NCBI RefSeq assembly: GCF_001742185.1
Contig: NZ_CP015750.1
Location: 2,666,001-2,730,000, forward strand
From: Pectobacterium wasabiae CFBP 3304
GTDB taxonomy: Bacteria > Pseudomonadota > Gammaproteobacteria > Enterobacterales > Enterobacteriaceae
Direction of reading: 5' to 3'
DNA: 64,000 bases
Shown: positions 37,826 to 50,366 of the stretch, piece after piece
How positions within the stretch are numbered: position 1 is the stretch's first letter
How the letters are laid out: each line of letters begins with the position of its first letter
Notes under the pieces: generated by a model
Database searches by the model: none
Told to the model about the DNA's origin: nothing
What the model saw: the letters and a program-made list of their open reading frames with translations, nothing else
Made by a program: the position numbers and the translations under genes

Positions 37826-38797
<972 letters not shown>

Positions 38798-38939
38798 TCA
38801 GGCGAGCAGTATACCATCAATAAAATTGATCCCCGGTCACCCGTTGTGTGATTCCTGATAGCGGCACGCAATTTTGGATTGCGTCTGATAAAAATCACGC
38901 GATAATCACGATTTACCTTATTGTAAAATGGCGACTGTG

Positions 38940-39365
38940 ATGGAAATCCGCATATTCAGGCAGGATGATTTTGAAGCCGTGATCACCCTCTGGGAACGTT
39001 GCGATTTGCTGCGTCCGTGGAACGATCCTGAAATGGACATCGAACGTAAGCTCAATCACGATCCCGATCTGTTTCTGGTCGCAGAAGTGAACGGTGAGAT
39101 CATAGCATCGGTGATGGGTGGGTACGACGGCCACCGTGGGTCTGCATACTATTTGGGGGTACATCCTGATTTTCGTGGGCGCGGCATTGCAAATGCGTTG
39201 ATTAGCCGTCTGGAGAAAAAACTTATCGCTCGCGGCTGTCCGAAGATCCACCTGATGGTGCGTGAAGACAACGATGCCGTGATCGGTATGTATGAAAAAC
39301 TCGACTATGAGATCGTCGATAGCGTCACGTTGGGAAAACGCTTGATTGAAGATCGAGAATATTGA
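38940..39365 (+). CDS. ypeA: GNAT acetyltransferase YpeA
   Basis: 141 residues from the ATG of '[12 protein letters not shown]', matching the E. coli YpeA start. Conserved '[19 protein letters not shown]', acetyl-CoA motif '[21 protein letters not shown]' and end '[11 protein letters not shown]'. Substrate unknown. In E. coli yfeZ follows; here a sigma-factor operon follows instead. Confidence 0.9.
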
Positions 39366-39449: not shown

Positions 39450-39467
39450 GATAATGAGTATCAATTA
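39450..39467. promoter_or_regulatory. Fur-box-like site upstream of the fecI-like gene
   Basis: GATAATGAGTATCAATTA contains two close matches to the Fur hexamer pair (GATAAT, then ATCATT-like) about 40 bp before the sigma factor start, suggesting iron control of the whole locus. Confidence 0.6.
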
Positions 39468-39504
39468 AACTAATATCATCTGCTTTTTGCCTGTTGAAAC
39501 CACT

Positions 39505-40026
39505 ATGACGCAGCTAACTTCTTTCTGGAGTGATTTTTACCAGACCCACCAAGGATGGCTGCGGGGATGGCTTTGTAAAAAAATGGGCTGTATCCATCAG
39601 GCAGATGATCTTACCCATGACACCTTTCTTAAACTCCTGACGCTTGCCGACCCTTCTGCTATCCGTCAACCTAAAGCCTATCTGATGGTGACGGCGAATC
39701 ACGTCATGATCGATCAGTTCCGTAAGCGTAAGTTGGAGCAAGATGCGTTATCTGCATTAGCGCTGCTGGTTGATGGAGAAGAAGAGCACTCTGCGGAATA
39801 CCGTGTTGCGATAAGCCAACTGGTGGCGACGGCGCTGCATATTCTGACCCATGAGCTAGACGAAAAAGTACAGCGTGCGTTTATTATGGCGCGTGTGGAA
39901 GGGCACGATTATCGGACGATTGCTGAGGCGTTGCATGTGAGCGAAAGTAGCGTAAAGCAATATCTGGCAAAAGCGATGGTGCATTTCCACAGTCGGATCT
40001 TTTTTCAGGAACAGGATGAAGCGTAA
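39505..40026 (+). CDS. FecI-type ECF sigma factor
   Basis: 173 residues from the ATG 'MTQLTSFWSDFY'; an upstream TTG would add six. Sigma region 2 is visible ('DDLTHDTFLKLL', 'YLMVTANHVMIDQFRKRK') and region 4 ('RAFIMARVEGHDYRTIAEAL', 'SSVKQYLAKAM'). FecI-type sigma factors transcribe TonB-receptor operons when a receptor signals through FecR. The stop lies inside fecR (11-nt overlap), so both are translated together. Confidence 0.9.
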   Translation: MTQLTSFWSDFYQTHQGWLRGWLCKKMGCIHQADDLTHDTFLKLLTLADPSAIRQPKAYLMVTANHVMIDQFRKRKLEQDALSALALLVDGEEEHSAEYRVAISQLVATALHILTHELDEKVQRAFIMARVEGHDYRTIAEALHVSESSVKQYLAKAMVHFHSRIFFQEQDEA

Positions 40027-40963
40027 CGCTGATTTTGAGCAGATCCAACAGCAGGCCGCTGAATGGATACTACGCTTCTCGGAAGTCGAGCAGGATAGCG
40101 ACGACGCAATATTACTGCATAAAGAGTGGCAGCAGTGGTGCCTGATAGATGCTCGACACCCTGTGGTTTATCATCAGATGCAGCAATTATGGACAAGTGC
40201 GACAGTCACACCTGCCTCGACATCACGTAAATCACGTCCATCCCGTTATGCTGCTCTGGCGATTTTCATCGCAGGGGGCTGGTTGCTAAGCCAGTTACCT
40301 TATGCTTATTGGTTAGCCGATCAACGAACGGTAGCGGGTGAAGTTCGACGTATTGTGCTGGACGATGGCAGTGAACTGATGCTCAACAGTAATTCGGCTG
40401 TGAATATCTCCTTTACATCACAGAAACGAACGATCACGTTGCTACGTGGCGAAGTCTATGCGCATGTTGCCAAAGATCCGCGCAGCAGACCGTTCGTGAT
40501 TGACAGTGCACAGGCAACGGCTCAAGCCTTAGGTACTCGCTATAGCGTGCGTGACGCCGGGGAAGATACGCTGGTAAGCGTTGACGAGTCTCGTGTTCGC
40601 GTTACTGCAAATAAGAATCCAGATATCCGTCTCGACCTTGGTGCTGGCCAACAAGTTGGACTCGATCAGCACCATATTACCCGACCTGTGAGTGCATCAA
40701 CGGAAGCGGGCTGGATCCACAACCAATTGATTTTTGAAAATGCACCGTTCACTCAGGTTATCGATGAACTTTCCCGTCACTATCCAGGGCTGATTTATCT
40801 GGATCCGCGCCAGCGTCAGGAACTCGAGCGTTTGCACTTTACTGGCGTTTTGCCATTGAATAACAGCCAGCAGGCACTTGAGCTACTGAAACACTCCCTT
40901 CCTATCTCCGTCCGACAGTCCTTTGGCTATATTTTCTGGATTGGTGAAAATAAAAATCGTTAA
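40016..40963 (+). CDS. FecR-type sigma regulator
   Basis: 315 residues. An N-terminal cytoplasmic sigma-binding part with DUF4880 features ('QQQAAEWILRFSE...WQQWCLIDARHP'), one transmembrane helix (about 76-97), then the periplasmic FecR domain ('EVRRIVLDDGSELMLNSNSAV', seen as 'RIVLDDGSELMLNSNSA', and 'ALGTRYSVRDAGEDTLVSV') and an STN-contacting C-terminal part. It relays receptor occupancy to the sigma factor. It is followed by the receptor after a 119-bp gap containing a second Fur-like A/T palindrome. Confidence 0.9.
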   Translation: MKRNADFEQIQQQAAEWILRFSEVEQDSDDAILLHKEWQQWCLIDARHPVVYHQMQQLWTSATVTPASTSRKSRPSRYAALAIFIAGGWLLSQLPYAYWLADQRTVAGEVRRIVLDDGSELMLNSNSAVNISFTSQKRTITLLRGEVYAHVAKDPRSRPFVIDSAQATAQALGTRYSVRDAGEDTLVSVDESRVRVTANKNPDIRLDLGAGQQVGLDQHHITRPVSASTEAGWIHNQLIFENAPFTQVIDELSRHYPGLIYLDPRQRQELERLHFTGVLPLNNSQQALELLKHSLPISVRQSFGYIFWIGENKNR

Positions 40964-40990
40964 TAATCAATGATAAAACAGATTTTTAAA

Positions 40991-41012
40991 TATAAATGAT
41001 AATTATTTTTAT
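40991..41012. promoter_or_regulatory. Fur-like A/T palindrome before the receptor gene
   Basis: ATAAATGATAATTATTTTTA resembles a degenerate Fur box and lies in the only sizeable gap of the operon, where the FecI-dependent receptor promoter would be expected. Confidence 0.4.
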
Positions 41013-41082
41013 TTTCTTCTGCCCGATTTCCGCTGAGCAACGTCTTCTCTCCTGAAAACATAAAATAATTCAGGGTAAATTC

Positions 41083-43893
41083 ATGCGTAATTTTTTGGGG
41101 ATGCGTAACACAATTTGGCCGATAACCGTGCTCACTCTGGCGTTAAGCGGGGGCAGTGCGGCGTTTGGTGCAACAGCACAATCAATACACCTTCCTGCAC
41201 AGTCATTGGAAAAATCATTAACACAATTGGCGCGGCAGACCGGTGTTAATTTTGGGGTTGATAGCCAACTGGTTGCAGGGAAGCAAGCTCCCGCGCTGGA
41301 AGGGAACTACACGGTTGAACAGGCTTTGGATCGGTTATTGAACAGTAATAACCTTTATGCGGAGCCTACGGAAGCCGGTAAAGCGTTTATCATTCGCCCC
41401 ATGGCCAGTATGTCGGCGTCGGATGATACTCAGACGATCAATACGAGTGCAGCGAATAGTCGTTCGGGAACCGAAAACAATGGCGATGTGATCACGGTAA
41501 AAGCGCAGATTTCGCCGGGACCGATGGAGATCGGCAGTCAGCAACTAGTGGCCGAGGAGATCGCAAAAAAGCCGACCGCTAATGGAAATATTACTGAGTT
41601 GCTGCGCACCAATCCAAACGTGCAATTCTCTGAAACGTCACGTAATAGTGAGACACCTGGAGAACTGGCTCCTGACGTTGTCTCGTTCCACGGTGAGAAG
41701 TTCTATAACAACAACTTCATGATCGATGGGATGTCGAACAACGATCGTCTGAACCCAGGCGTGAATGTCGGTGAGGTTGGGGCTGTCGCCAATGGGAATG
41801 GCCCTAATGATTTCCCATCTGGCCATCCTGAGTCTTTTTGGATAGACAGTAGCCTGATTGAAAGCTTGTCCGTTTATGACAGCAACGTGTCGGCGAAGTA
41901 TGGCCAGTTCACCGGTGGTGTCATTGATGCAAAACTTAAAAAACCGTCGTTTACCGAGCCATCCGGTTCTGTCTCTTACAGAACAACGCGTTCATCATGG
42001 ACGAAATATCATCTGGAGAAAAAAGAGGAAGCCTCGTTTAGTGCCGCAACCACGCTTAAGAAGCAGCCTAAATTTACCAAAAATTTTTATAACCTGAACG
42101 TTAGCCAGCCCCTTAATGATAATGCGGCGCTGATGTTTGTGTATAGCCGTAAGGAATCTGATATCCCATTCTGGCATACGATTTTCCAAAGATGGGAAGA
42201 TCAATCACGCGAATCCGAAACCTATATGTTACGTGGTGCGTGGGATGCGAATGAACGGAACCAATTTAGCTTATCACTCATGCATTCACCCCATAGTGCA
42301 AGCTATGTGCGTTCCAATATGAAGGATGCTGGTTTTACTGCTGAAGGTGGTGGATATAATGCCAATCTGAAGTGGGATAATCAGAATAAATGGGGAAAAG
42401 TTGCCACACAGTTAATATGGAAGCAGAACGAAAATACCATCAAAAATAAAGGAAATAATTTTTATAATTGGGTTAAAACAGACAGTATTGACTGGGTATC
42501 GAGCTATTCTGGAACTGCTGCTCAGGAAGGGGGATATGGCACGGTAAGAACCGAGCAGTCGGGCATTAATTTTAAGCAGGATTGGCAGCTAAATCCTTTT
42601 TCTGCCTGGGGTGTACAACACCAGTTTGATTTCGGCTTTGATACCGATTTTTCCGAGGCTCGTTATCAGCGTAAGAACAATTCCTATTCTTATGCTACTG
42701 CGAACAGAAAAAGTACTGTGGTATGTAACGGCGATTCTGCATGTATTGACGGTGAGCAGTATTTCCGCCAACGGACAGTATATGAAGCATCTGATGTAAA
42801 AGTGGCGGCAAGCACTTATGCAGTTTATTTACAAGATACATTAACCTATTCCCGCCTGGCTGTGACATCCGGTATTCGCGTTGATTATGACGATTACATG
42901 AAAAACGTGAATATCTCTCCACGTTTCAGTTCGAGCTATGATGTTTGGGGCGATCGTTCCACTGAGTTTTTCGGTGGAATAAACCGTTACTATGCGGGCA
43001 ATATTTTGGCTTATAAGCTGAGAGAAGCGCGTAAGTTGGGCTATAACGAATGCCGCGCTGAACATGTGAATTCGCGTGGATCATGTAATGCCTTGTCAAC
43101 GAGTTCCAGTAATACGCCAGGTGAGTGGGTCTTTAATAAGGCATCTACTCAAGCTGATTACCGATACACGTCATTAAATACTCCTTACAGTGATGAACTC
43201 AATCTCGGTGCGCAGCAGCGAATTTATGACACCGTTTGGACGTTGAAATGGGTTCATCGTGAAGCAAAAGACCAATTTGCTGCTGAGAAAAATAAAACCA
43301 CAAAAACCTATGAGTTAACCAATAACGGGAAATCCGAGTCCGACACATTTAGCTTGATGGTCAAGCCTGTTTCTCCCATTGAATGGAATTCTGCGGTATT
43401 CAGTTGGTCGGCGGGAGCGAATATTCATAAAAGTACCTCCTCAAATAAGGACTATGACACTGAGGTGGATCTCGATCGCCAGATTATCTATAACGGAAAA
43501 ATGATCCGCGCGATTGATAAACCCGCCGATAATTACAACCGCCCCTGGACGGCGTTTCTTGAGCTGAATACTGAAATACCCAACTGGCGTTTAGATTGGA
43601 CACAGCGTTTAAGTTATGTCGGCGGCTACAAAGCCATGAAACGGACTGAAACCATTAACTGTCCAGATGATGACCGCTGTTCCGGGTATGTCGGTTCTAC
43701 TGATGTATATGAAGAAGATCAGTATGGCAACAATATGCTGCTGGACTGGCGTGTGAATTATACCCAGCCATTAGGTAAGCAGAATCTAAAAGTGGGTGTA
43801 GATGTACTCAATGTCCTGAATAAAGCCAACAAGAACGAATCTAATTATGGATTAGGTCGTCAGTTCTGGCTGGATGTGACGTATTCATGGTAA
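41083..43893 (+). CDS. TonB-dependent receptor with STN signalling domain (FusA/YddB-like)
   Basis: 936 residues. Signal peptide to about 30 ('SAAFGA'), STN secretin/TonB signalling domain about 35-105 ('QSLEKSLTQLARQTGVNFGV'), a linker, a plug domain with the TonB-box region 'GDVITVKAQ' and 'VVSFHGEKFYNNNFMIDGM', and a 22-strand barrel ending in aromatic 'FWLDVTYSW'. Extracellular-loop-like cysteine pairs are seen in 'VVCNGDSACIDG', 'NECRAEHVNSRGSC' and 'NCPDDDRCSG'. Together with M16 protease and SbmA-type transporter this is the FusA/YddB arrangement for importing a small protein. Ligand unknown. Confidence 0.9.
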   Translation: MRNFLGMRNTIWPITVLTLALSGGSAAFGATAQSIHLPAQSLEKSLTQLARQTGVNFGVDSQLVAGKQAPALEGNYTVEQALDRLLNSNNLYAEPTEAGKAFIIRPMASMSASDDTQTINTSAANSRSGTENNGDVITVKAQISPGPMEIGSQQLVAEEIAKKPTANGNITELLRTNPNVQFSETSRNSETPGELAPDVVSFHGEKFYNNNFMIDGMSNNDRLNPGVNVGEVGAVANGNGPNDFPSGHPESFWIDSSLIESLSVYDSNVSAKYGQFTGGVIDAKLKKPSFTEPSGSVSYRTTRSSWTKYHLEKKEEASFSAATTLKKQPKFTKNFYNLNVSQPLNDNAALMFVYSRKESDIPFWHTIFQRWEDQSRESETYMLRGAWDANERNQFSLSLMHSPHSASYVRSNMKDAGFTAEGGGYNANLKWDNQNKWGKVATQLIWKQNENTIKNKGNNFYNWVKTDSIDWVSSYSGTAAQEGGYGTVRTEQSGINFKQDWQLNPFSAWGVQHQFDFGFDTDFSEARYQRKNNSYSYATANRKSTVVCNGDSACIDGEQYFRQRTVYEASDVKVAASTYAVYLQDTLTYSRLAVTSGIRVDYDDYMKNVNISPRFSSSYDVWGDRSTEFFGGINRYYAGNILAYKLREARKLGYNECRAEHVNSRGSCNALSTSSSNTPGEWVFNKASTQADYRYTSLNTPYSDELNLGAQQRIYDTVWTLKWVHREAKDQFAAEKNKTTKTYELTNNGKSESDTFSLMVKPVSPIEWNSAVFSWSAGANIHKSTSSNKDYDTEVDLDRQIIYNGKMIRAIDKPADNYNRPWTAFLELNTEIPNWRLDWTQRLSYVGGYKAMKRTETINCPDDDRCSGYVGSTDVYEEDQYGNNMLLDWRVNYTQPLGKQNLKVGVDVLNVLNKANKNESNYGLGRQFWLDVTYSW

Positions 43894-43918
43894 GTGATAA
43901 AAATAATAAAGGTCAGTG

Positions 43919-46696
43919 ATGAAAAATAAAATTATGTATTGGCTGACAGGTGTTATTTGCCTGTTAGCGGGAAGCATTGTGGGCGTGAGCCAGGCCGAAG
44001 AAATAAAAAGTCCGTTACCGGTTATTAAAGAAGGGACGCTGGCTAACGGGTTGCGTTATACCCTTGTGCCGCTGGAAGGGCAGAAGACGCGGGTCGATAT
44101 TCGCCTGATTGTTGATGTTGGTTCGATTGATGAAAACGACAATGAATCTGGTGTGGCACACATGGTGGAGCACATGGTGTTTCGCGCCAGCGATACGTTT
44201 CCTCAAGGTGTGAGCACGGAACTGCACAAACAAGGCTGGGTTCGTGCGCAGCACTATAACGCCATGACCAACTACGAACGCACCATGTACATGATGAGCC
44301 CACCGAAAGGTAATCGCGATCTGGGCGTGACGTTACAGGCGCTGAGCCAGATGACGGGTCATGCCAAGCTGTTGCAAAGCGATCTCGACGACGAGCGCAA
44401 AATTATTTTGGAAGAGTGGCGTGGCAAGCTGGGCGTCGCGGAGCGGATGAATCAGCAGCGCGTACAGGCGATTCGCCATGACTCGCGTTATCCTTCGCGC
44501 CCGGTGATTGGCACAGAAGCATCGATCAACGAGATGCCTGCCAGCGTACTACAGGATTTTTATCAGCGCTGGTATCGTCCGTCGAATATGCGCTTGATGA
44601 TCATTGGTGATATCACACCTGCGGATGCGGAACGTGAAATTCAACGCTATTTCACACCATTGCCCAATGTCGCTGTGCCTGTTCGTGATTATTACGAACC
44701 ATTATTGAAACCGCAGCTTAAAGTTATGCGTTTGCAGGATAGCCAAAGCGGCAGCAGTCAGGTGTCGTTTGTCTACCGTTTCAATGATAAAGACACATTA
44801 GGTCAACCTGAGTATCGTCACCGTTTACTGACGCAAATCACGATGTCTGCGGCCACGCGTCAGGTTCGCCGACAGAAATCGGAATTGCCGCAAGACGCCA
44901 GTAGTCTGGTGGTGCGTAAATCGGATATCGGTAAAACGACGGCAGCGCTGGGCTTTTTCGCCAATGTGATGCCGGGAGGCCATGACGCCGCGCTTTCTGC
45001 CGTACTGAAAGAAATTGAGCGGTTAAAACGCTATCCGTTAAACGAGCGGGACATCACGGAGATCGCATCCGACATTCGTGAAGTTGCGCAGCGTATGAGC
45101 GTTACCCCTGAAACCCGTGAGTTTGCGGACTGGGTACAGCAGTTGACCATCGTCTGGCAACAGGGTCGTCCTTATGTCGGCAGCCAGCAGCGCGGTAAAG
45201 ATGCGCTGGAAGCGCTGGACACCATCACGGTGGAAGATGTGAATCGCCATTTGCAACGCTGGCTAGCCTCACCGGATACGCTGGTGCAGTTTAGCGTGCC
45301 GGGCGCGACACCTTTCACGCTGCCTAAGCCGGAAGTGATTCTCAAATTGCAGAGACAGTGGGCGGTAGCGACGTTGGCACCGTTGCAGGTAGAAAAAGAG
45401 AAAGTCATCCCTGAGCTTCCTTCCGTGACACAAAGCGGAAAGCGTACAGCTGTGAAAACTTTTGCTGCACAAAAGGTAGAACAGTGGCAACTGAGTAATG
45501 GTGACCGCGTGGTATGGCTACGAACGCCAGAGGCAGGTAAAAACATCCACCTGACCGCCATCAGCCAAGCGGGATTTATGGCAACCTCAATGAATCCGTG
45601 GCAGGCACAGTTGGCAAGTCAACTGGTCAATCAAAGCGGCCCTGCGACGTGGAGTGGTGAAGCGTTAAGTAACTGGAAGAAAGAAAAAACGCTGTCGCTG
45701 AGCATCAATCAGGAATCGGATCAACTGACAGTCAGTGGCACCGCACCCATGGAGCAACTGGCAAGTTTGTTTGGGCTATACCGTGAGCTAAACGTTGCGC
45801 CGGGAATCGATCCGGATGTGATGAAAGAGAGCATGATGAGCCTGGCGCGTCAGAAAGCCAATGACGACCAGTCTGTTTCAGGTATACGTGCCAGTGAAAT
45901 TACTAAACTGCGCTTTGGTGGGCCAACCTGGCAACAGCCTGAAATTGCCGAACTGAAGCACATTACGGCACCAGCCTTACTGTCGCAGTGGCATAAAGCG
46001 GCTTTTGCGCCTGTTACTTATTATCTGGTGGCGGATATGCCTGCCGCACAACTGTTGCCGCAGGTAGAACGCTATCTGGCGACCATTCCGCGTCAGCCTG
46101 CTAGTGATGTCAAACAGCACCTTGCACTGCTGGGCCAGCGTGAAGCAACCTCTGCCATCAATATCGAACCGCGTGCTGATATCTTGACCTGGAGTTTCAC
46201 ACCGCATACGTGGACGCCGCAGGCTGCGGTACAGGTGAGCATTGCTCGTAGCATTGCAAATAAATACCTCAAAGCTAGCCTGCGTGATGACGCTCTGGGT
46301 ATTTACCGCATGCGTATCGATAGCGAGTTGGAAGATAAAAAACAGCGCATTGAGACAGAAGTGAACTTCACCACGGCACCTGGTCGTGCGCAAGAGCTGT
46401 GGAAGCTGGCGGAACAGCAGTTTGCTGAATTGCCATCAAAGATTACGCAGCAGGATGTCGACGAACAAAAAGCACGGTTCATCCGTATGGAAAAAGGACG
46501 TCAGAGCGATCTGACCACCATACAGCGCCGCTTGATGTTGAGCTACCGCCACTATGACGATCCGCGCTATTTGAGTAGCGTATCCAAACTGGCAGACAGC
46601 ATCACGCTGGAAGGCGTGCGCTCCATGTCGGCGAAGCTCTATAACCCCGATAACCGGGTGCTTTACATCGCCTTGCCACAAGAGGTTAAAGAGTGA
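43919..46696 (+). CDS. pqqL: Periplasmic M16 zinc protease, PqqL/FusC-like
   Basis: 925 residues from the ATG at 43919 (AAAGG seven nt before; a GTG one codon earlier is less likely). Signal peptide about 1-28 ('GVSQAEE'). Zinc site HxxEH in 'GVAHMVEHMVFRASDT' with the downstream Glu in 'DERKIILEEWRGKLG'. Four M16 subdomains, the second half without a zinc motif, as in PqqL and FusC. In the Fus system FusC cleaves imported ferredoxin in the periplasm to release iron. The gene follows the receptor by 25 bp and overlaps the transporter by 4 nt. Confidence 0.92.
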   Translation: MKNKIMYWLTGVICLLAGSIVGVSQAEEIKSPLPVIKEGTLANGLRYTLVPLEGQKTRVDIRLIVDVGSIDENDNESGVAHMVEHMVFRASDTFPQGVSTELHKQGWVRAQHYNAMTNYERTMYMMSPPKGNRDLGVTLQALSQMTGHAKLLQSDLDDERKIILEEWRGKLGVAERMNQQRVQAIRHDSRYPSRPVIGTEASINEMPASVLQDFYQRWYRPSNMRLMIIGDITPADAEREIQRYFTPLPNVAVPVRDYYEPLLKPQLKVMRLQDSQSGSSQVSFVYRFNDKDTLGQPEYRHRLLTQITMSAATRQVRRQKSELPQDASSLVVRKSDIGKTTAALGFFANVMPGGHDAALSAVLKEIERLKRYPLNERDITEIASDIREVAQRMSVTPETREFADWVQQLTIVWQQGRPYVGSQQRGKDALEALDTITVEDVNRHLQRWLASPDTLVQFSVPGATPFTLPKPEVILKLQRQWAVATLAPLQVEKEKVIPELPSVTQSGKRTAVKTFAAQKVEQWQLSNGDRVVWLRTPEAGKNIHLTAISQAGFMATSMNPWQAQLASQLVNQSGPATWSGEALSNWKKEKTLSLSINQESDQLTVSGTAPMEQLASLFGLYRELNVAPGIDPDVMKESMMSLARQKANDDQSVSGIRASEITKLRFGGPTWQQPEIAELKHITAPALLSQWHKAAFAPVTYYLVADMPAAQLLPQVERYLATIPRQPASDVKQHLALLGQREATSAINIEPRADILTWSFTPHTWTPQAAVQVSIARSIANKYLKASLRDDALGIYRMRIDSELEDKKQRIETEVNFTTAPGRAQELWKLAEQQFAELPSKITQQDVDEQKARFIRMEKGRQSDLTTIQRRLMLSYRHYDDPRYLSSVSKLADSITLEGVRSMSAKLYNPDNRVLYIALPQEVKE

Positions 46697-48366
46697 AGAA
46701 GATCGTGGTGCAGTTTGTCGATCTCTGCCGTCCCTTTTGGGGCGGCAAACGAAGTTGGCAGGCTTGGTTACTCCTGTTTGTTACTATCGGGATGGGCGGG
46801 ATGATCGTCTATCTCAACGTGTTGTTAAACGCGTGGAGTAAAACGTTTTATGATGCGCTAGGGGCATTCGACAGCGGTTTGTTGCTTTCCCTGATGAAAG
46901 AATATGGTATTTACATCCTGCTTTATATCGGGTCGATCGTGTATCAGGAATGGTTTACCAAACTGCTGATTATCCGCTGGCGCAGCGCGTTAACCGCAGA
47001 GCTGGTGGACAGTTGGCTGGCGAAGCGGGCATTTTATCGTATGTCGGTGGCGGGCAAGATTGATAACCCAGACCAGCGTATTGCCGAAGATATCAACCTG
47101 TTTGTCGACAAAGCCGTTAGCCTGGTCGTCGAGTTTTTGATCGTGACGGCACGCTTGTTTTCTTTTGTCGTTATCCTGTGGGGGTTATCGGGCGTTCAGC
47201 GCTTTACGTTGTTTGGTGAAGAGTGGGTAATCAAAGGTTATCTGGTTTGGATCGCTATTCTGTATACGCTGATCGGCAGTCTGATTACGCATGTGGTCGG
47301 GAAACGCCTGCACGATATTAATTACGATAAGCAAAAAGCGGAGGCAGATTTCCGCGCCGCGCTGCTGCGTAAGCATGATAATGCTGAGCAAATCGCGCTG
47401 TACGGCGGCGAAGCGCAAGAGAAACGTCATCTTCAGCGCCATTTCTCTGCCATTGTGTTGAACTGGGGACGTTTTATGAATGCCGAACGTAATCTGGGCT
47501 TTTTCACCACGGGTTATATGCGCGTGAGCCAGATTGTGCCGGTCTTTGCGGCGTTGCCTGCCTTCCTGAGTAAGACGGTCACTCTGGGCGGATTGATGCA
47601 GATCCGCGGGGCGTTTGCGCAGGTACACGGTGCGCTGAGCTGGTTTATCCATAAGTACAAGGAGTTTGTGATTCTGTCCGCCAGTATGGCGCGTCTGAGT
47701 CAGTTCAAAGAAGAAATCAGACGTCATCAGTCTGAACAGGCCGATGCGCCAGTAGGACAGGATTTACGCATTGAGCAACTCTCCTTTACTACGCCACAGG
47801 GCTCTCCGCTGTTGCAAAATGTGGATCTGAGTTGCGAAGCGGGTAGCTGGAGTAAATTTTCTGGCCGCAGCGGGTTGGGGAAATCCACGCTGCTGCGCAC
47901 GCTACATGGTTTATGGCCGTATTACGATGGCCGGTGGCAATCGCTCGAAGGGCGCAGCCTGCTGTTACCACAGCAAAGCTATTTAGGACAGGGCACGCTG
48001 GCGGAGATCCTCTGCTATCCCCATCCACCGCTGGCTGACAGCGAGATGTTGCGCCAGACGCTGGATAACGTCGGGCTGGGGGCGTGGCGCGATCGTTTAA
48101 GTGAGCAACTGAACTGGGATCGGGTGTTTTCCGGCGGCGAGAGACAACGTATCGCTTTTGCCCGTGCGCTGATTGCCAAACCCGATACGCTCTATCTGGA
48201 TGAAGCGACCAGTAATCTGGATCATGACTCTGCCAGACAGCTTCTGGCGCTGCTCAAGCTGGCGTTGCCGATGTGTACCGTGGTGGCGATTACGCACCAG
48301 ACAGAATTGGACGATCTGTTCCCACATCGTTATGACTTAACGGATTTCGCCTCGCCACGCAGTTGA
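46693..48366 (+). CDS. yddA: SbmA/BacA-type ABC transporter with fused ATPase, YddA/FusD-like
   Basis: 557 residues. About six membrane helices of the SbmA/BacA fold (1-320), then an ATPase domain with Walker A 'FSGRSGLGKSTLLRTL', signature 'FSGGERQRIAFARAL' and Walker B 'PDTLYLDEATSNLD'. Family members move peptides across the inner membrane; the E. coli homolog YddA and FusD are the inner-membrane step for fragments or emptied protein. GTG start overlaps the protease stop (GTGA) and AGAGG lies 7 nt before it. Confidence 0.9.
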   Translation: MKKIVVQFVDLCRPFWGGKRSWQAWLLLFVTIGMGGMIVYLNVLLNAWSKTFYDALGAFDSGLLLSLMKEYGIYILLYIGSIVYQEWFTKLLIIRWRSALTAELVDSWLAKRAFYRMSVAGKIDNPDQRIAEDINLFVDKAVSLVVEFLIVTARLFSFVVILWGLSGVQRFTLFGEEWVIKGYLVWIAILYTLIGSLITHVVGKRLHDINYDKQKAEADFRAALLRKHDNAEQIALYGGEAQEKRHLQRHFSAIVLNWGRFMNAERNLGFFTTGYMRVSQIVPVFAALPAFLSKTVTLGGLMQIRGAFAQVHGALSWFIHKYKEFVILSASMARLSQFKEEIRRHQSEQADAPVGQDLRIEQLSFTTPQGSPLLQNVDLSCEAGSWSKFSGRSGLGKSTLLRTLHGLWPYYDGRWQSLEGRSLLLPQQSYLGQGTLAEILCYPHPPLADSEMLRQTLDNVGLGAWRDRLSEQLNWDRVFSGGERQRIAFARALIAKPDTLYLDEATSNLDHDSARQLLALLKLALPMCTVVAITHQTELDDLFPHRYDLTDFASPRS

Positions 48367-48678: not shown

Positions 48679-49296
48679 ATGAATTTTCGCTCGCGCTCTT
48701 TGCGGTTACCGCTCGTGTTGGGTTTACCGCTACTGCTGGCCGGATGCAGCACGCTGTCCAATTTTTCCTGGTCCAGCCTATCGCCGTTTAACTGGTTCGG
48801 TAGTTCGCTGCAAATTACGGATGCGGGCGTCGGTGGTATTAATGCGGGTACGCCGTTATCTGAAGGCGCATTACAGAATGCGCTGGATGGCAATTATCAA
48901 CTGCGTAGCGGAATGGGAACCTCCAATGGTCAACTGGTCGCGTTTTATCAGGCGCTGGATGGCAAAGAGGTGAAGATGATCATCAGCGGCCAGCCGAAGG
49001 GCAGCGTGCGCAAAGTTGAGGTCATGGACCCGACGATTGGCAGTGCAGGTGGCGTGAAAATCGGTGATGCCTTTAGCAACACTTACAATAAAGCCTTTGA
49101 GTCTTGTCAGTTGGGACAAGGTGATGATGCGCAGGGCGTTGAATGTGCCGCGCCACAGAGCGCGCATATCAGCTACGTTTATTCCGGCGAGTGGAGCGGT
49201 CCAGAAGGCTTGATGCCGCCCGACGATATCCTGAAAAGCTGGAAAGTGAGCAAAATTGTGTGGCATGCGCAGGCGCGTAACACATCCGTTCTATAA
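48679..49296 (+). CDS. yfeY: Lipoprotein YfeY (DUF1131)
   Basis: 205 residues with a signal peptide and lipobox 'LLLAGCSTL'. The mature part has 'NWFGSSLQITDAGVGGI', 'YQLRSGMGTSNGQLVAFY' and the strongly conserved 'GEWSGPEGLMPPDDILKSWK'. In E. coli YfeY is a sigma-E-controlled envelope lipoprotein of unknown function. It is followed by yfeX, preserving the E. coli order. Confidence 0.9.
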   Translation: MNFRSRSLRLPLVLGLPLLLAGCSTLSNFSWSSLSPFNWFGSSLQITDAGVGGINAGTPLSEGALQNALDGNYQLRSGMGTSNGQLVAFYQALDGKEVKMIISGQPKGSVRKVEVMDPTIGSAGGVKIGDAFSNTYNKAFESCQLGQGDDAQGVECAAPQSAHISYVYSGEWSGPEGLMPPDDILKSWKVSKIVWHAQARNTSVL

Positions 49297-49466: not shown

Positions 49467-50366
49467 ATGACACCAATTCAAAGCGGTATTTTATTGGAAC
49501 ACCGCCGTTTTGCCATTTTTATGGAAGCGATGATTCAGGGAGAGTTTGATGCTATCCGGCAGGGATGCAAAAAATTCTGTCAGACATTACAAGATTTACA
49601 GCAGCAGTATCCCGATGCTGGGTTAGGTGCGGTGCTGGCATTTGGTAACGATGTTTGGCGCGATCTGGACTGCAACCACAGCGCGACGGAGCTGAAATCG
49701 TTTACGCCGTTGGGTAAAGGGCTTGCCCCGGCAACACAGCGCGATCTGTTGATCCACATCCAATCGCTTCGCCATGATGTTAACTTCACGCTGGCACAGG
49801 CGGCGCTGGCCGCGTTTGGTAGCGCGATTCGCATCGAAGAAGAAACACACGGTTTCCGCTGGGTGGAAGATCGTGATTTAAGTGGCTTTATCGATGGTAC
49901 GGAAAACCCACAGGGTGAAGCTCGGCACGCCGTGGCAATTATCTCTGAAGACCAGCCGGATGCAGGCGGTAGCTACGTGTTTACCCAACGCTGGGAACAC
50001 AATTTGAAGCAGTTGCAGCGTTTTAGCGTGGAACAACAGGAACAGATGATCGGGCGCACGAAGCAGGATAACGAAGAGCTGTCTTCCGATGAGCGCCCTG
50101 TGACCTCGCATCTCAGCCGCGTGGATTTAAAGGAAGACGGCAAAGGGCTGAAAATTCTGCGCCAGAGCCTGCCTTATGGCACCGCCAGCGGGAAGAACGG
50201 GCTTTACTTCGTTGCCTACTGCGCGCGTCTGCACAACATCGAGCAACAGTTGTTGAGTATGTTCGGCGATCGTGACGGCAAACGTGATGATATGCTGCGC
50301 TTTACGCGGGCCGTCAGCGGCAGCTACTTCTTTGCGCCGTCTTTGGCGAAGCTTTTGTCGCTGTAA
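49467..50366 (+). CDS. yfeX: Dye-decolorising heme peroxidase YfeX
   Basis: 299 residues of DyP peroxidase. Signature '[12 protein letters not shown]' with the catalytic Asp and the heme-site Arg/His region ('[16 protein letters not shown]', '[18 protein letters not shown]'). YfeX is a cytoplasmic heme peroxidase, sometimes proposed to release iron from heme; that proposal is debated. A GAGG-type site precedes the ATG. A clear terminator follows. Confidence 0.93.

What the first reader, a model, noticed from the sequence alone, without database searches (positions are those of the whole stretch)
39505..48366. Signal-controlled Fus-like protein-import locus (FecI-FecR-receptor-M16 protease-SbmA-type ABC)
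Seen: a FecI-type sigma factor, FecR-type regulator, TonB receptor with STN domain, HxxEH M16 protease with signal peptide and SbmA/BacA-type ABC protein, with overlaps or short gaps. Known: FusA/FusC/FusD import and cleave ferredoxin in Pectobacterium, and E. coli has yddB-pqqL-yddA. Inference: a second, inducible system that takes up and cleaves a different, probably iron-bearing host or competitor protein. The sigma/anti-sigma pair and missing FusB distinguish it from the described Fus operon.
Basis: partly seen in the sequence, partly recalled or inferred. Interest (0 to 1): 0.82.

Follow-up and report, generated by a model that had tools for sequence, protein, structure and literature searches.

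The report
Swappable receptor module at ferredoxin-import locus
In this soft-rot bacterium the receptor and its TonB partner at the known iron-piracy (ferredoxin import) locus appear to be replaced by a different receptor with its own sensing switch, while the downstream protease and transporter stay the same; the same swap recurs in its genus.

Summary
All five genes are real and in order: FecI, FecR, STN-FusA-type receptor, FusC, FusD. But this is not a second system. It is the genome's only copy, at the canonical fus site hemF-ypeA-[fus]-yfeY-yfeX. In 25 Pectobacterium genomes the site holds fusB-fusA ('form 1', 15 of 25, one broken), fecI-fecR-STN receptor ('form 2', 8 of 25, window included), or no fus is found (2 of 25). 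None has both, and FusB tracks form 1 exactly. The label needs 7 changes on a recN-region tree and 7 on the FusC tree, as many as shuffled labels. Beyond the FusC signal peptide no FusC or FusD site separates the forms. So form 2 is an exchangeable entry-and-sensing module on an unchanged protease and transporter. The FusC residues reported to bind ferredoxin are kept, so plant-type ferredoxin remains the likeliest cargo, imported without FusB and probably inducing its own uptake; the ligand is untested, and the receptor pocket has diverged. New variant of a known kind; one earlier survey counts nearly all these species as fusABCD carriers (PMC6963963).

The parts
37826..38767 (-). hemF, left flank of the canonical fus site
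   Evidence: found beside the fus locus in most fetched Pectobacterium and near-relative loci
38928..39365 (+). ypeA-type GNAT acetyltransferase; the module's left boundary lies 1-8 bp after its stop in the three pairs where it could be seen
   Evidence: Acetyltransf_1 6e-21; breakpoints
39450..39468 (+). Fur-box-like site upstream of fecI (13 of 19 to a recalled consensus), inside a block conserved in 8 of 8 form-2 Pectobacterium loci
   Evidence: 17 places on the + strand of the window score 13 or more, so the conservation carries the weight, not the score
39505..40026 (+). fecI-type ECF sigma factor, part of the form-2 module
   Evidence: Sigma70_r2 and r4_2; NCBIfam FecI model 118.5 bits, below its 260-bit cut-off
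40016..40963 (+). fecR-type sigma regulator (anti-sigma)
   Evidence: FecR 8.4e-22; NCBIfam FecR model 152.2 bits, below its 385-bit cut-off
40998..41044 (+). promoter region of the receptor: Fur-like stretch 40998-41016, TGCCCGAT 41020-41027 and CGTC 41041-41044 (ECF-like -35/-10, inferred)
   Evidence: conserved in 8 of 8 form-2 Pectobacterium loci; TGCCCGAT and CGTC also in Symbiopectobacterium L017
41083..43893 (+). STN-bearing FusA-type TonB-dependent receptor (form 2)
   Evidence: STN and Plug; 735.6 bits to FusA 4zgv over residues 111-936; Foldseek top hit 4zgv, TMt 0.87
41245..41391 (+). STN signalling domain (residues 55-103)
41485..41505 (+). putative TonB box DVITVKA (form 1 has DTILVRS-type sequence at the same place, Asp aligned)
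43916..46696 (+). FusC, periplasmic M16 protease; the module's right boundary lies in its signal peptide (about codons 9-15)
   Evidence: 1831.5 bits to 6b03; breakpoints in 5 of 5 pairs; form-linked residues only at 2-10
44159..44173 (+). HMVEH zinc motif of FusC (residues 82-86 here; H80, E83, H84 in published numbering)
46693..48366 (+). FusD, fused SbmA/BacA-type membrane domain and ABC ATPase
   Evidence: 84-98% to FusD of the other Pectobacterium loci
48679..49296 (+). yfeY-type DUF1131 protein, right flank
   Evidence: the name yfeY is recalled
49467..50366 (+). yfeX-type Dyp peroxidase, right flank
   Evidence: the name yfeX is recalled

Best explanation
Shown by sequence: the module fecI-fecR-STN-receptor stands where other strains have fusB-fusA, and fusC and fusD downstream carry no form-linked difference beyond the FusC signal peptide. 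Inferred: under iron limitation Fur lets fecI-fecR be made. A protein ligand bound by the receptor signals through the STN domain to FecR and FecI, which switches on receptor-fusC-fusD. The ligand is pulled in by the general TonB or by the second TonB of the genome instead of the dedicated FusB, FusC cuts it in the periplasm, and FusD takes up a product. The likeliest ligand is a plant-type [2Fe-2S] ferredoxin, because the same FusC serves both receptors. The two receptor types are kept in the genus as a long-lived, recombining polymorphism.
For: One copy only in the genome. Same site in both forms. Mutual exclusion in 25 genomes: form 2 in 8, form 1 with FusB in 15, neither in 2, both in 0. 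The label needs 7 changes on the recN-region tree (25 rows, shuffled mean 7.0, AU p 6e-22 against one clade) and 7 on FusC (22 rows, AU p 5e-6). Closest mixed pair G005/G004: 98.1% identity up to 8 bp past the ypeA stop, then three short matches (62-110 bp), then 97.8% over 9.8 kb from about fusC codon 9. FusC beyond its first 100 columns: between/within-form distance ratio 0.95-1.15 and no disjoint site; FusD none at all. Ferredoxin-contact residues R180, R332, R796, R798, M392, A428 (listed in PMC6071955) are invariant in 14 form-1 and 8 form-2 FusC; Y298 varies alike in both. Receptor model: best PDB match FusA 4zgv, then YddB. Three form-2 genomes, the window's included, have just two TonB_C genes. 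Conserved promoter blocks.
Against: No ligand was tested. [quoted passage not shown] The receptor pocket is only 26% identical to a FusA. Unchanged FusC may reflect frequent recombination rather than the same substrate. In Symbiopectobacterium FusC 54-55 of all 61 arginines are kept, so retention of the four contact arginines there is weak evidence; Yersinia form-2 FusC has S at 392 and K at 798. Fur and ECF sites are pattern readings only.
Confidence: 0.62

Rival explanations
1. Form 2 imports a different protein (another iron-sulphur protein of plants, or a competitor's protein), and FusC is broad enough to cut it.
For: Pocket identity of the window receptor to a FusA is 26% against 48% elsewhere, and between the forms 27% against 47%; FusB, which binds ferredoxin itself, is absent.
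Against: The pocket is the more variable part within each form too (58% against 76% within form 2, 46% against 65% within form 1). Mature FusC shows no form-linked residue over 7 or more switches and keeps the ferredoxin contacts; a protease serving two unrelated proteins would be expected to show some.
Confidence: 0.25
2. The receptor swap is mainly an escape from bacteriocins that use FusA (ferredoxin-domain pectocins), with the same or nearly the same food protein. It can hold together with the best explanation.
For: FusA is the pectocin M1 receptor (PMC5095587, section 5 read). Form-1 receptors are unusually diverse (2.56 times the recN-region distance). Three of 25 genomes carry a Colicin_M gene, whose frames begin with a ferredoxin-like part (recognised by eye). 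In the 2012 panel 2 of 5 P. carotovorum and 5 of 5 P. atrosepticum strains were pectocin M1 sensitive (PMC3302902, passages).
Against: Carriers are G004 (form 1), G005 (form 2) and G008 (form 1): too few to test a link. The forms of the strains in the 2012 panel were not looked up.
Confidence: 0.3
3. A separate, second import system.
For: Different receptor clade and regulators.
Against: Only copy in the genome, at the canonical site, with orthologous FusC and FusD.
Confidence: 0.02
4. A siderophore receptor that happens to lie next to fusC and fusD.
For: STN receptors with FecI/FecR mostly serve siderophores or ferric citrate (general knowledge).
Against: The barrel is FusA-type: Foldseek TMt 0.87 to FusA and 0.85 to YddB against 0.53-0.77 for the other 48 matches listed; the order fecI-fecR-receptor-fusC-fusD is kept in two Symbiopectobacterium-type genomes and in G345.
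Confidence: 0.06

Closest known systems
Fus operon fusBACD of Pectobacterium (ferredoxin uptake)
   Same: Genomic site, FusC (84-92% among Pectobacterium), FusD, FusA-type barrel, order receptor-fusC-fusD
   Different: No FusB; fecI-fecR in its place; receptor has an STN domain and is about 43% identical to FusA, with a diverged pocket
YddA-YddB-PqqL of E. coli (protease-associated import system)
   Same: Receptor, M16 protease and SbmA-type ABC set; receptor model TMt 0.85 to YddB
   Different: Distant sequence (PqqL 170 bits); FecI, FecR and STN do not occur in the main text of PMC6793856
FecI-FecR-FecA ferric citrate system
   Same: ECF sigma factor, regulator, STN receptor; the receptor's N-terminus alone matches the FecA model (residues 18-118)
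   Different: FecI and FecR score far below the curated cut-offs; barrel is FusA-type; FecBCDE are not among the neighbouring genes seen
HasI-HasS-HasR hemophore system (with TonB homologue HasB)
   Same: Precedent for cell-surface signalling switched on by a protein-borne ligand (PMC9249621, passages)
   Different: HasR takes haem off the protein; no import and cleavage of the protein itself (passages; absence of an M16 protease is recalled)
Third kind of locus seen here in other Enterobacterales: divergent TonB-like gene, fecI-fecR-receptor-fusD-fusC
   Same: FecI/FecR control of a FusA/FusC/FusD set
   Different: Own TonB-like gene, order fusD-fusC, receptor 30-33% identical, FusC about 20% identical and mostly without the ferredoxin contacts

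Membership tests
Canonical Fus operon (fusBACD) | FusC orthologue with HxxEH zinc site | tested here: met
   1831 bits to 6b03; catalytic residues and ferredoxin contacts at the published positions
Canonical Fus operon (fusBACD) | FusD fused SbmA/ABC protein directly downstream | tested here: met
Canonical Fus operon (fusBACD) | FusB, a dedicated TonB-like protein | tested here: not met
   FusB query finds in G000 only a TonB at 61 bits; two TonB_C genes in the genome, neither at the locus
Canonical Fus operon (fusBACD) | Receptor inside the FusA clade | tested here: not met
   Sister clade, not inside: form-1 clade support 97, form-2 clade 94 (SH-aLRT, quick tree)
Canonical Fus operon (fusBACD) | Plant ferredoxin as ligand | not testable with these tools
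   needs a binding or growth assay
Protease-associated import systems (PMC6793856) | FusA-type receptor genetically linked to a FusC-type M16 protease | tested here: met
Protease-associated import systems (PMC6793856) | Periplasmic protease made under iron limitation | not testable with these tools
   signal peptide by eye; Fur-like sites only by pattern
FecIR-type cell-surface signalling | ECF sigma factor, FecR-type regulator and STN domain on the receptor, together | tested here: met
FecIR-type cell-surface signalling | Ligand-dependent transcription of the receptor genes | not testable with these tools
   needs a reporter assay
Ferric citrate Fec system | FecI and FecR equivalog score | tested here: not met
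   118.5 against a 260-bit and 152.2 against a 385-bit cut-off

The most novel reading that the evidence does not exclude
The genus keeps two receptor modules as a long-lived trans-species polymorphism at one protein-import locus, like a serotype or self-recognition locus. Form 2 imports a folded ferredoxin with a general TonB and no FusB, gated by ligand sensing, and is kept by conflict with bacteriocins that disguise themselves as ferredoxin.
Probability: 0.3. Interest if true: 0.8.

Novelty: new variant of a known kind. Interest (0 to 1): 0.62.

Why it matters
Ferredoxin import is the model case of a bacterium taking in a folded host protein, and FusB was found to be indispensable because it grips the cargo itself (PMC7593965). 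About a third of the Pectobacterium genomes examined (8 of 25) have the same protease and transporter but no FusB and another receptor. Such strains are a ready natural experiment on what FusB is needed for, on whether a protein ligand can switch on its own import through FecI-FecR, and on why receptors are exchanged. The finding also corrects a survey statement that all Pectobacterium species but P. betavasculorum appeared to harbour fusABCD (PMC6963963, passages).

Tried and rejected
Second system elsewhere in the genome: searched with receptor and protease, none. Replacement TonB: the TonB_C profile finds in the window's genome a general TonB (254-aa frame) and a 301-aa frame beside a gene that looks ExbB-like by eye. 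Frames of 252-255 aa and of 289-301 aa with similar scores occur in 8 of 8 form-2 genomes, so no TonB confined to form 2 was found by that profile. Origin of the regulators: the FecR search listed 120 of 233 matches; after the form-2 ones the best is unnamed (44%) and the nearest named are Pseudomonas, Nitrosomonas and Hylemonella at 37-39%; left open. Contact residues in deep relatives: not discriminating, because arginines are kept anyway and both forms show losses. Pectocin link: 3 of 25 carriers, not testable. Fur box by consensus: many chance matches, so only conservation is used. The first recN-region tree mixed strands and had a false long root branch; it was discarded and redone.

Literature: searches. 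Seen: PMC6793856 (section 6, passages), PMC6071955 (section 6, passages), PMC5095587 (section 5, passages), PMC7593965 (outline, sections 7 and 8, passages), PMC13253070 (section 10, passages), PMC3302902 (outline with abstract, passages); passages only of PMC6963963, PMC9249621, PMC10946231, PMC10991766, PMC11658791, PMC7843439; the rest as listings. In none of this did I find a FecI/FecR-STN form of the Pectobacterium fus locus. Supplements could not be opened, so S1 Table of PMC6793856 and Table S30 of PMC6963963 are unseen, and most subscription papers are not in the library.
Full report
WHAT IS THERE. The five genes are present at the stated coordinates with the stated domains. FecI and FecR overlap by 11 bp, FusC and FusD by 4 bp; the receptor follows FecR by 119 bp and FusC follows the receptor by 22 bp. 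The only Rfam match in the window at gathering threshold is a tmRNA far away.

WHERE IT IS. The window is part of a 5,043,228-bp one-contig genome. That length equals the one given for P. wasabiae in Table 1 of PMC6963963 (passages); the identification is an inference. The receptor and the protease have no second copy: the next protease match scores 42 bits, and the next receptor match is 38 bits in the STN region of another receptor. The protease matches PDB 6b03, 6b05 and 6brs at 1813-1831 bits. That these are the FusC structures of PMC6071955 is recalled; it fits that a form-1 FusC bears all the residues published for FusC (H80, H84, E165, R180, Y298, R332, M392, A428, R796, R798) at the published positions. 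The receptor matches FusA (4zgv) over residues 111-936 at 735.6 bits.

TWO FORMS AT ONE SITE. A scan of named genomes gave 17 loci. Of these, 11 have a FusA-type receptor and no fecI-fecR (form 1: L006, L007, L008, L010, L011, L013 Samsonia, L014 and L015 Brenneria, L016, L019 broken, L020 Erwinia) and 6 have fecI-fecR (form 2: L009 P. carotovorum DSM 30168, L012 P. fontis, L018 P. brasiliense CFBP8736, and L017 and the broken L021 and L022 Symbiopectobacterium). In the 10 form-1 loci other than Erwinia the order is ypeA-fusB-fusA-fusC-fusD-yfeY-yfeX, in two of them (L006, L007) with extra genes between ypeA and fusB. The Erwinia locus has fusB-fusA-fusC-fusD in other surroundings.

COUNTS IN THE GENUS. 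In 25 Pectobacterium genomes, the window's own included, FusC is found in 23 (G021 in pieces; G003 and G007 none). Receptor form 2 (80-100% identity, reaching the N-terminus) is in 8; form 1 (45-49%) is in 15, G021's in part. FusB (566-722 bits) is in 15 of 25, the same 15; the other 10 show only a TonB at 39-61 bits. No genome has both forms. In a family scan of 392 genomes, with at most two candidates scored in most genomes, 43 have a related receptor; four carry two different ones, each time a form 1 or form 2 with the third kind, never forms 1 and 2 together. By source names, P. brasiliense, P. aroidearum and P. carotovorum each hold both forms (120 of 238 matches listed).

THE MODULE MOVES INDEPENDENTLY. 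On a 4.7-kb recN-region tree of 25 genomes the label needs 7 changes (shuffled mean 7.0); one clade is rejected (AU p 6e-22). On FusC (22 rows; broken G021 dropped) 7 changes, p 5e-6; on FusD (23 rows) 7, of which 5 are forced by well-supported branches, p 4e-35; on yfeX+cysP (20 rows that had both genes in the fetched stretch) 6, p 1.6e-6. The recN region is one locus, so this is not a full species tree. With nine FusC from outside the genus the protein tree needs 8 changes (31 rows, 7 forced, shuffled mean 9.3); there the Symbiopectobacterium and Yersinia-type form-2 FusC stand together (support 82), outside the Pectobacterium mixture. Five mixed pairs were compared. The closest, G005 (form 2) and G004 (form 1), is 98.1% identical up to 8 bp after the ypeA stop and 97.8% identical again for 9.8 kb from about codon 9 of fusC, with three matches of 62-110 bp at 69-87% between. 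The left boundary is visible in 3 of 5 pairs (1, 6 and 8 bp after the stop), the right one in 5 of 5 (about codon 9-15 of fusC). Along FusC the between/within-form distance ratio is 2.65 in the first 100 columns (1 fixed, 7 disjoint sites) and 0.95-1.15 afterwards, with no disjoint site; FusD has none. At protein level the form-linked FusC positions are 2, 3, 5, 6, 7 and 10; FusD has none.

AGE. A plug-and-barrel tree (quick search) puts form 1 (16 rows, support 97) and form 2 (12 rows, support 94) in separate clades, with ten receptors of the third and other kinds as outgroup; two rows have long branches. Form 2 includes sequences named Symbiopectobacterium and Yersinia. The form-2 receptor differs among the 8 genomes by 0.15 on average (1.41 times the recN-region distance, the same as FusC among them), the form-1 receptor among 14 by 0.24 (2.56 times; FusC 1.31). 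I infer that both modules are old in the genus rather than a recent sweep.

CARGO. PMC6071955 (passages) names FusC residues that touch ferredoxin: R180, R332, R796, R798, Y298, M392, A428. Six are invariant in 14 form-1 and 8 form-2 FusC; Y298 varies alike in both (Y/F/L); the window has all seven. In two Symbiopectobacterium-type form-2 FusC (61% identity) the four arginines, M392 and A428 remain and 298 is M, but 54-55 of all 61 arginines remain as well. The Yersinia-type form 2 has I at 298, S at 392 and K at 798; Erwinia (Q at 798) and G067 (N at 796, L at 798), both form 1, show losses too. This places form 2 with ferredoxin-type FusC but does not prove the cargo. Against it, the receptor pocket (101 of the positions that PMC5095587 used in docking, mapped on P0075, which may differ slightly from the crystallised allele) is 26% identical to that FusA against 48% elsewhere; the control is that the pocket is the more variable part within form 2 (58% against 76%) and within form 1 (46% against 65%) as well.

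ENERGY. In LMG 2410, FusB is needed for ferredoxin import and the general TonB is not (PMC7593965, sections 7 and 8). FusB touches FusA at D53 of DTILVRST and also grips ferredoxin (PMC13253070, passages and section 10). Form 2 has DVITVKA in the window at this place, the aspartate aligned. The window's genome has two TonB_C genes; G014 and G015, also form 2, have two each of the same sizes. If the profile misses none, one of these two energises the receptor.

REGULATION. Upstream of fecI a block with GATAATGAGTATCAATTA, and upstream of the receptor a block with AAATGATAATTATTTTTATTT, TGCCCGAT and CGTC, are conserved in 8 of 8 form-2 Pectobacterium loci; the last two also in Symbiopectobacterium L017. 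I read these as Fur sites and an ECF promoter; this is inference.

STRUCTURE. The AlphaFold2 model (52 sequences, mean pLDDT 75.3, pTM 0.71) is closest to FusA 4zgv (TMt 0.87) and YddB (0.85); the other 48 listed matches lie at 0.53-0.77.

WIDER. Thirteen fetched loci of other Enterobacterales (L078-L090) have fecI-fecR-receptor-fusD-fusC; the contig of L083 ends within fecR, and in L078 the receptor lies in two frames. Twelve show a divergent frame of 259-281 aa next to fecI, and 4 of 4 tested are TonB_C proteins; the STN domain was tested by Pfam in L084 alone and is there. L091 (G157) has fusD-receptor-fusC without fecI-fecR. So FecI/FecR-controlled sets of this kind are widespread, as a rule with a dedicated TonB. 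Form 2 differs in having none at the locus.

LITERATURE. PMC5095587 (section 5) says fusA is in all cases examined with a TonB-like gene. PMC6963963 (passages) says all species but P. betavasculorum appeared to harbour fusABCD. PMC13253070 studied FusB conservation in the genus; 'wasabiae', 'parmentieri' and 'brasiliense' do not occur in its main text. PMC6793856 (section 6; FecI, FecR and STN absent from the main text) describes diverse contexts, but its tables were not seen. In the searches named under Tried and rejected I found no description of the swap.

Noticed in passing
L078-L090: A third kind of locus in other Enterobacterales: divergent TonB-like gene, fecI-fecR-receptor-fusD-fusC; its FusC-like protease is about 20% identical and mostly lacks the ferredoxin contacts.
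   Followed up: partly
L006 3429-5651, L007 3827-5913: The ypeA-fus gap takes up extra genes in some strains: a 740-aa TonB-dependent receptor in P. zantedeschiae, three frames including a nucleotidyltransferase-like and a phosphatase-like one in P. polonicum (all named by eye).
   Followed up: no
FusD of G001, G006, G008, G010, G011, G012, G023: FusD falls into two sequence groups (84-86% or 92-98% identity to the window), not tied to the receptor form: a further recombining allele pair.
   Followed up: no
L072 (G004), L073 (G005), L074 (G008): Open colicin-M-type bacteriocin genes with an N-terminal ferredoxin-like part in two form-1 genomes and one form-2 genome; G004 and G005 are close relatives with different receptors.
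   Followed up: partly
L019 and G021 fus locus: fusA and fusC lie in pieces in Pectobacterium sp. PL152, several breaks in one locus; sequencing errors or decay, not resolved.
   Followed up: no
P0017-P0019: Three receptors of about 900 aa, 49-51% identical to the window, basal in the form-2 clade, with an apparent STN region and a DDTIIV box by eye; no source names.
   Followed up: no
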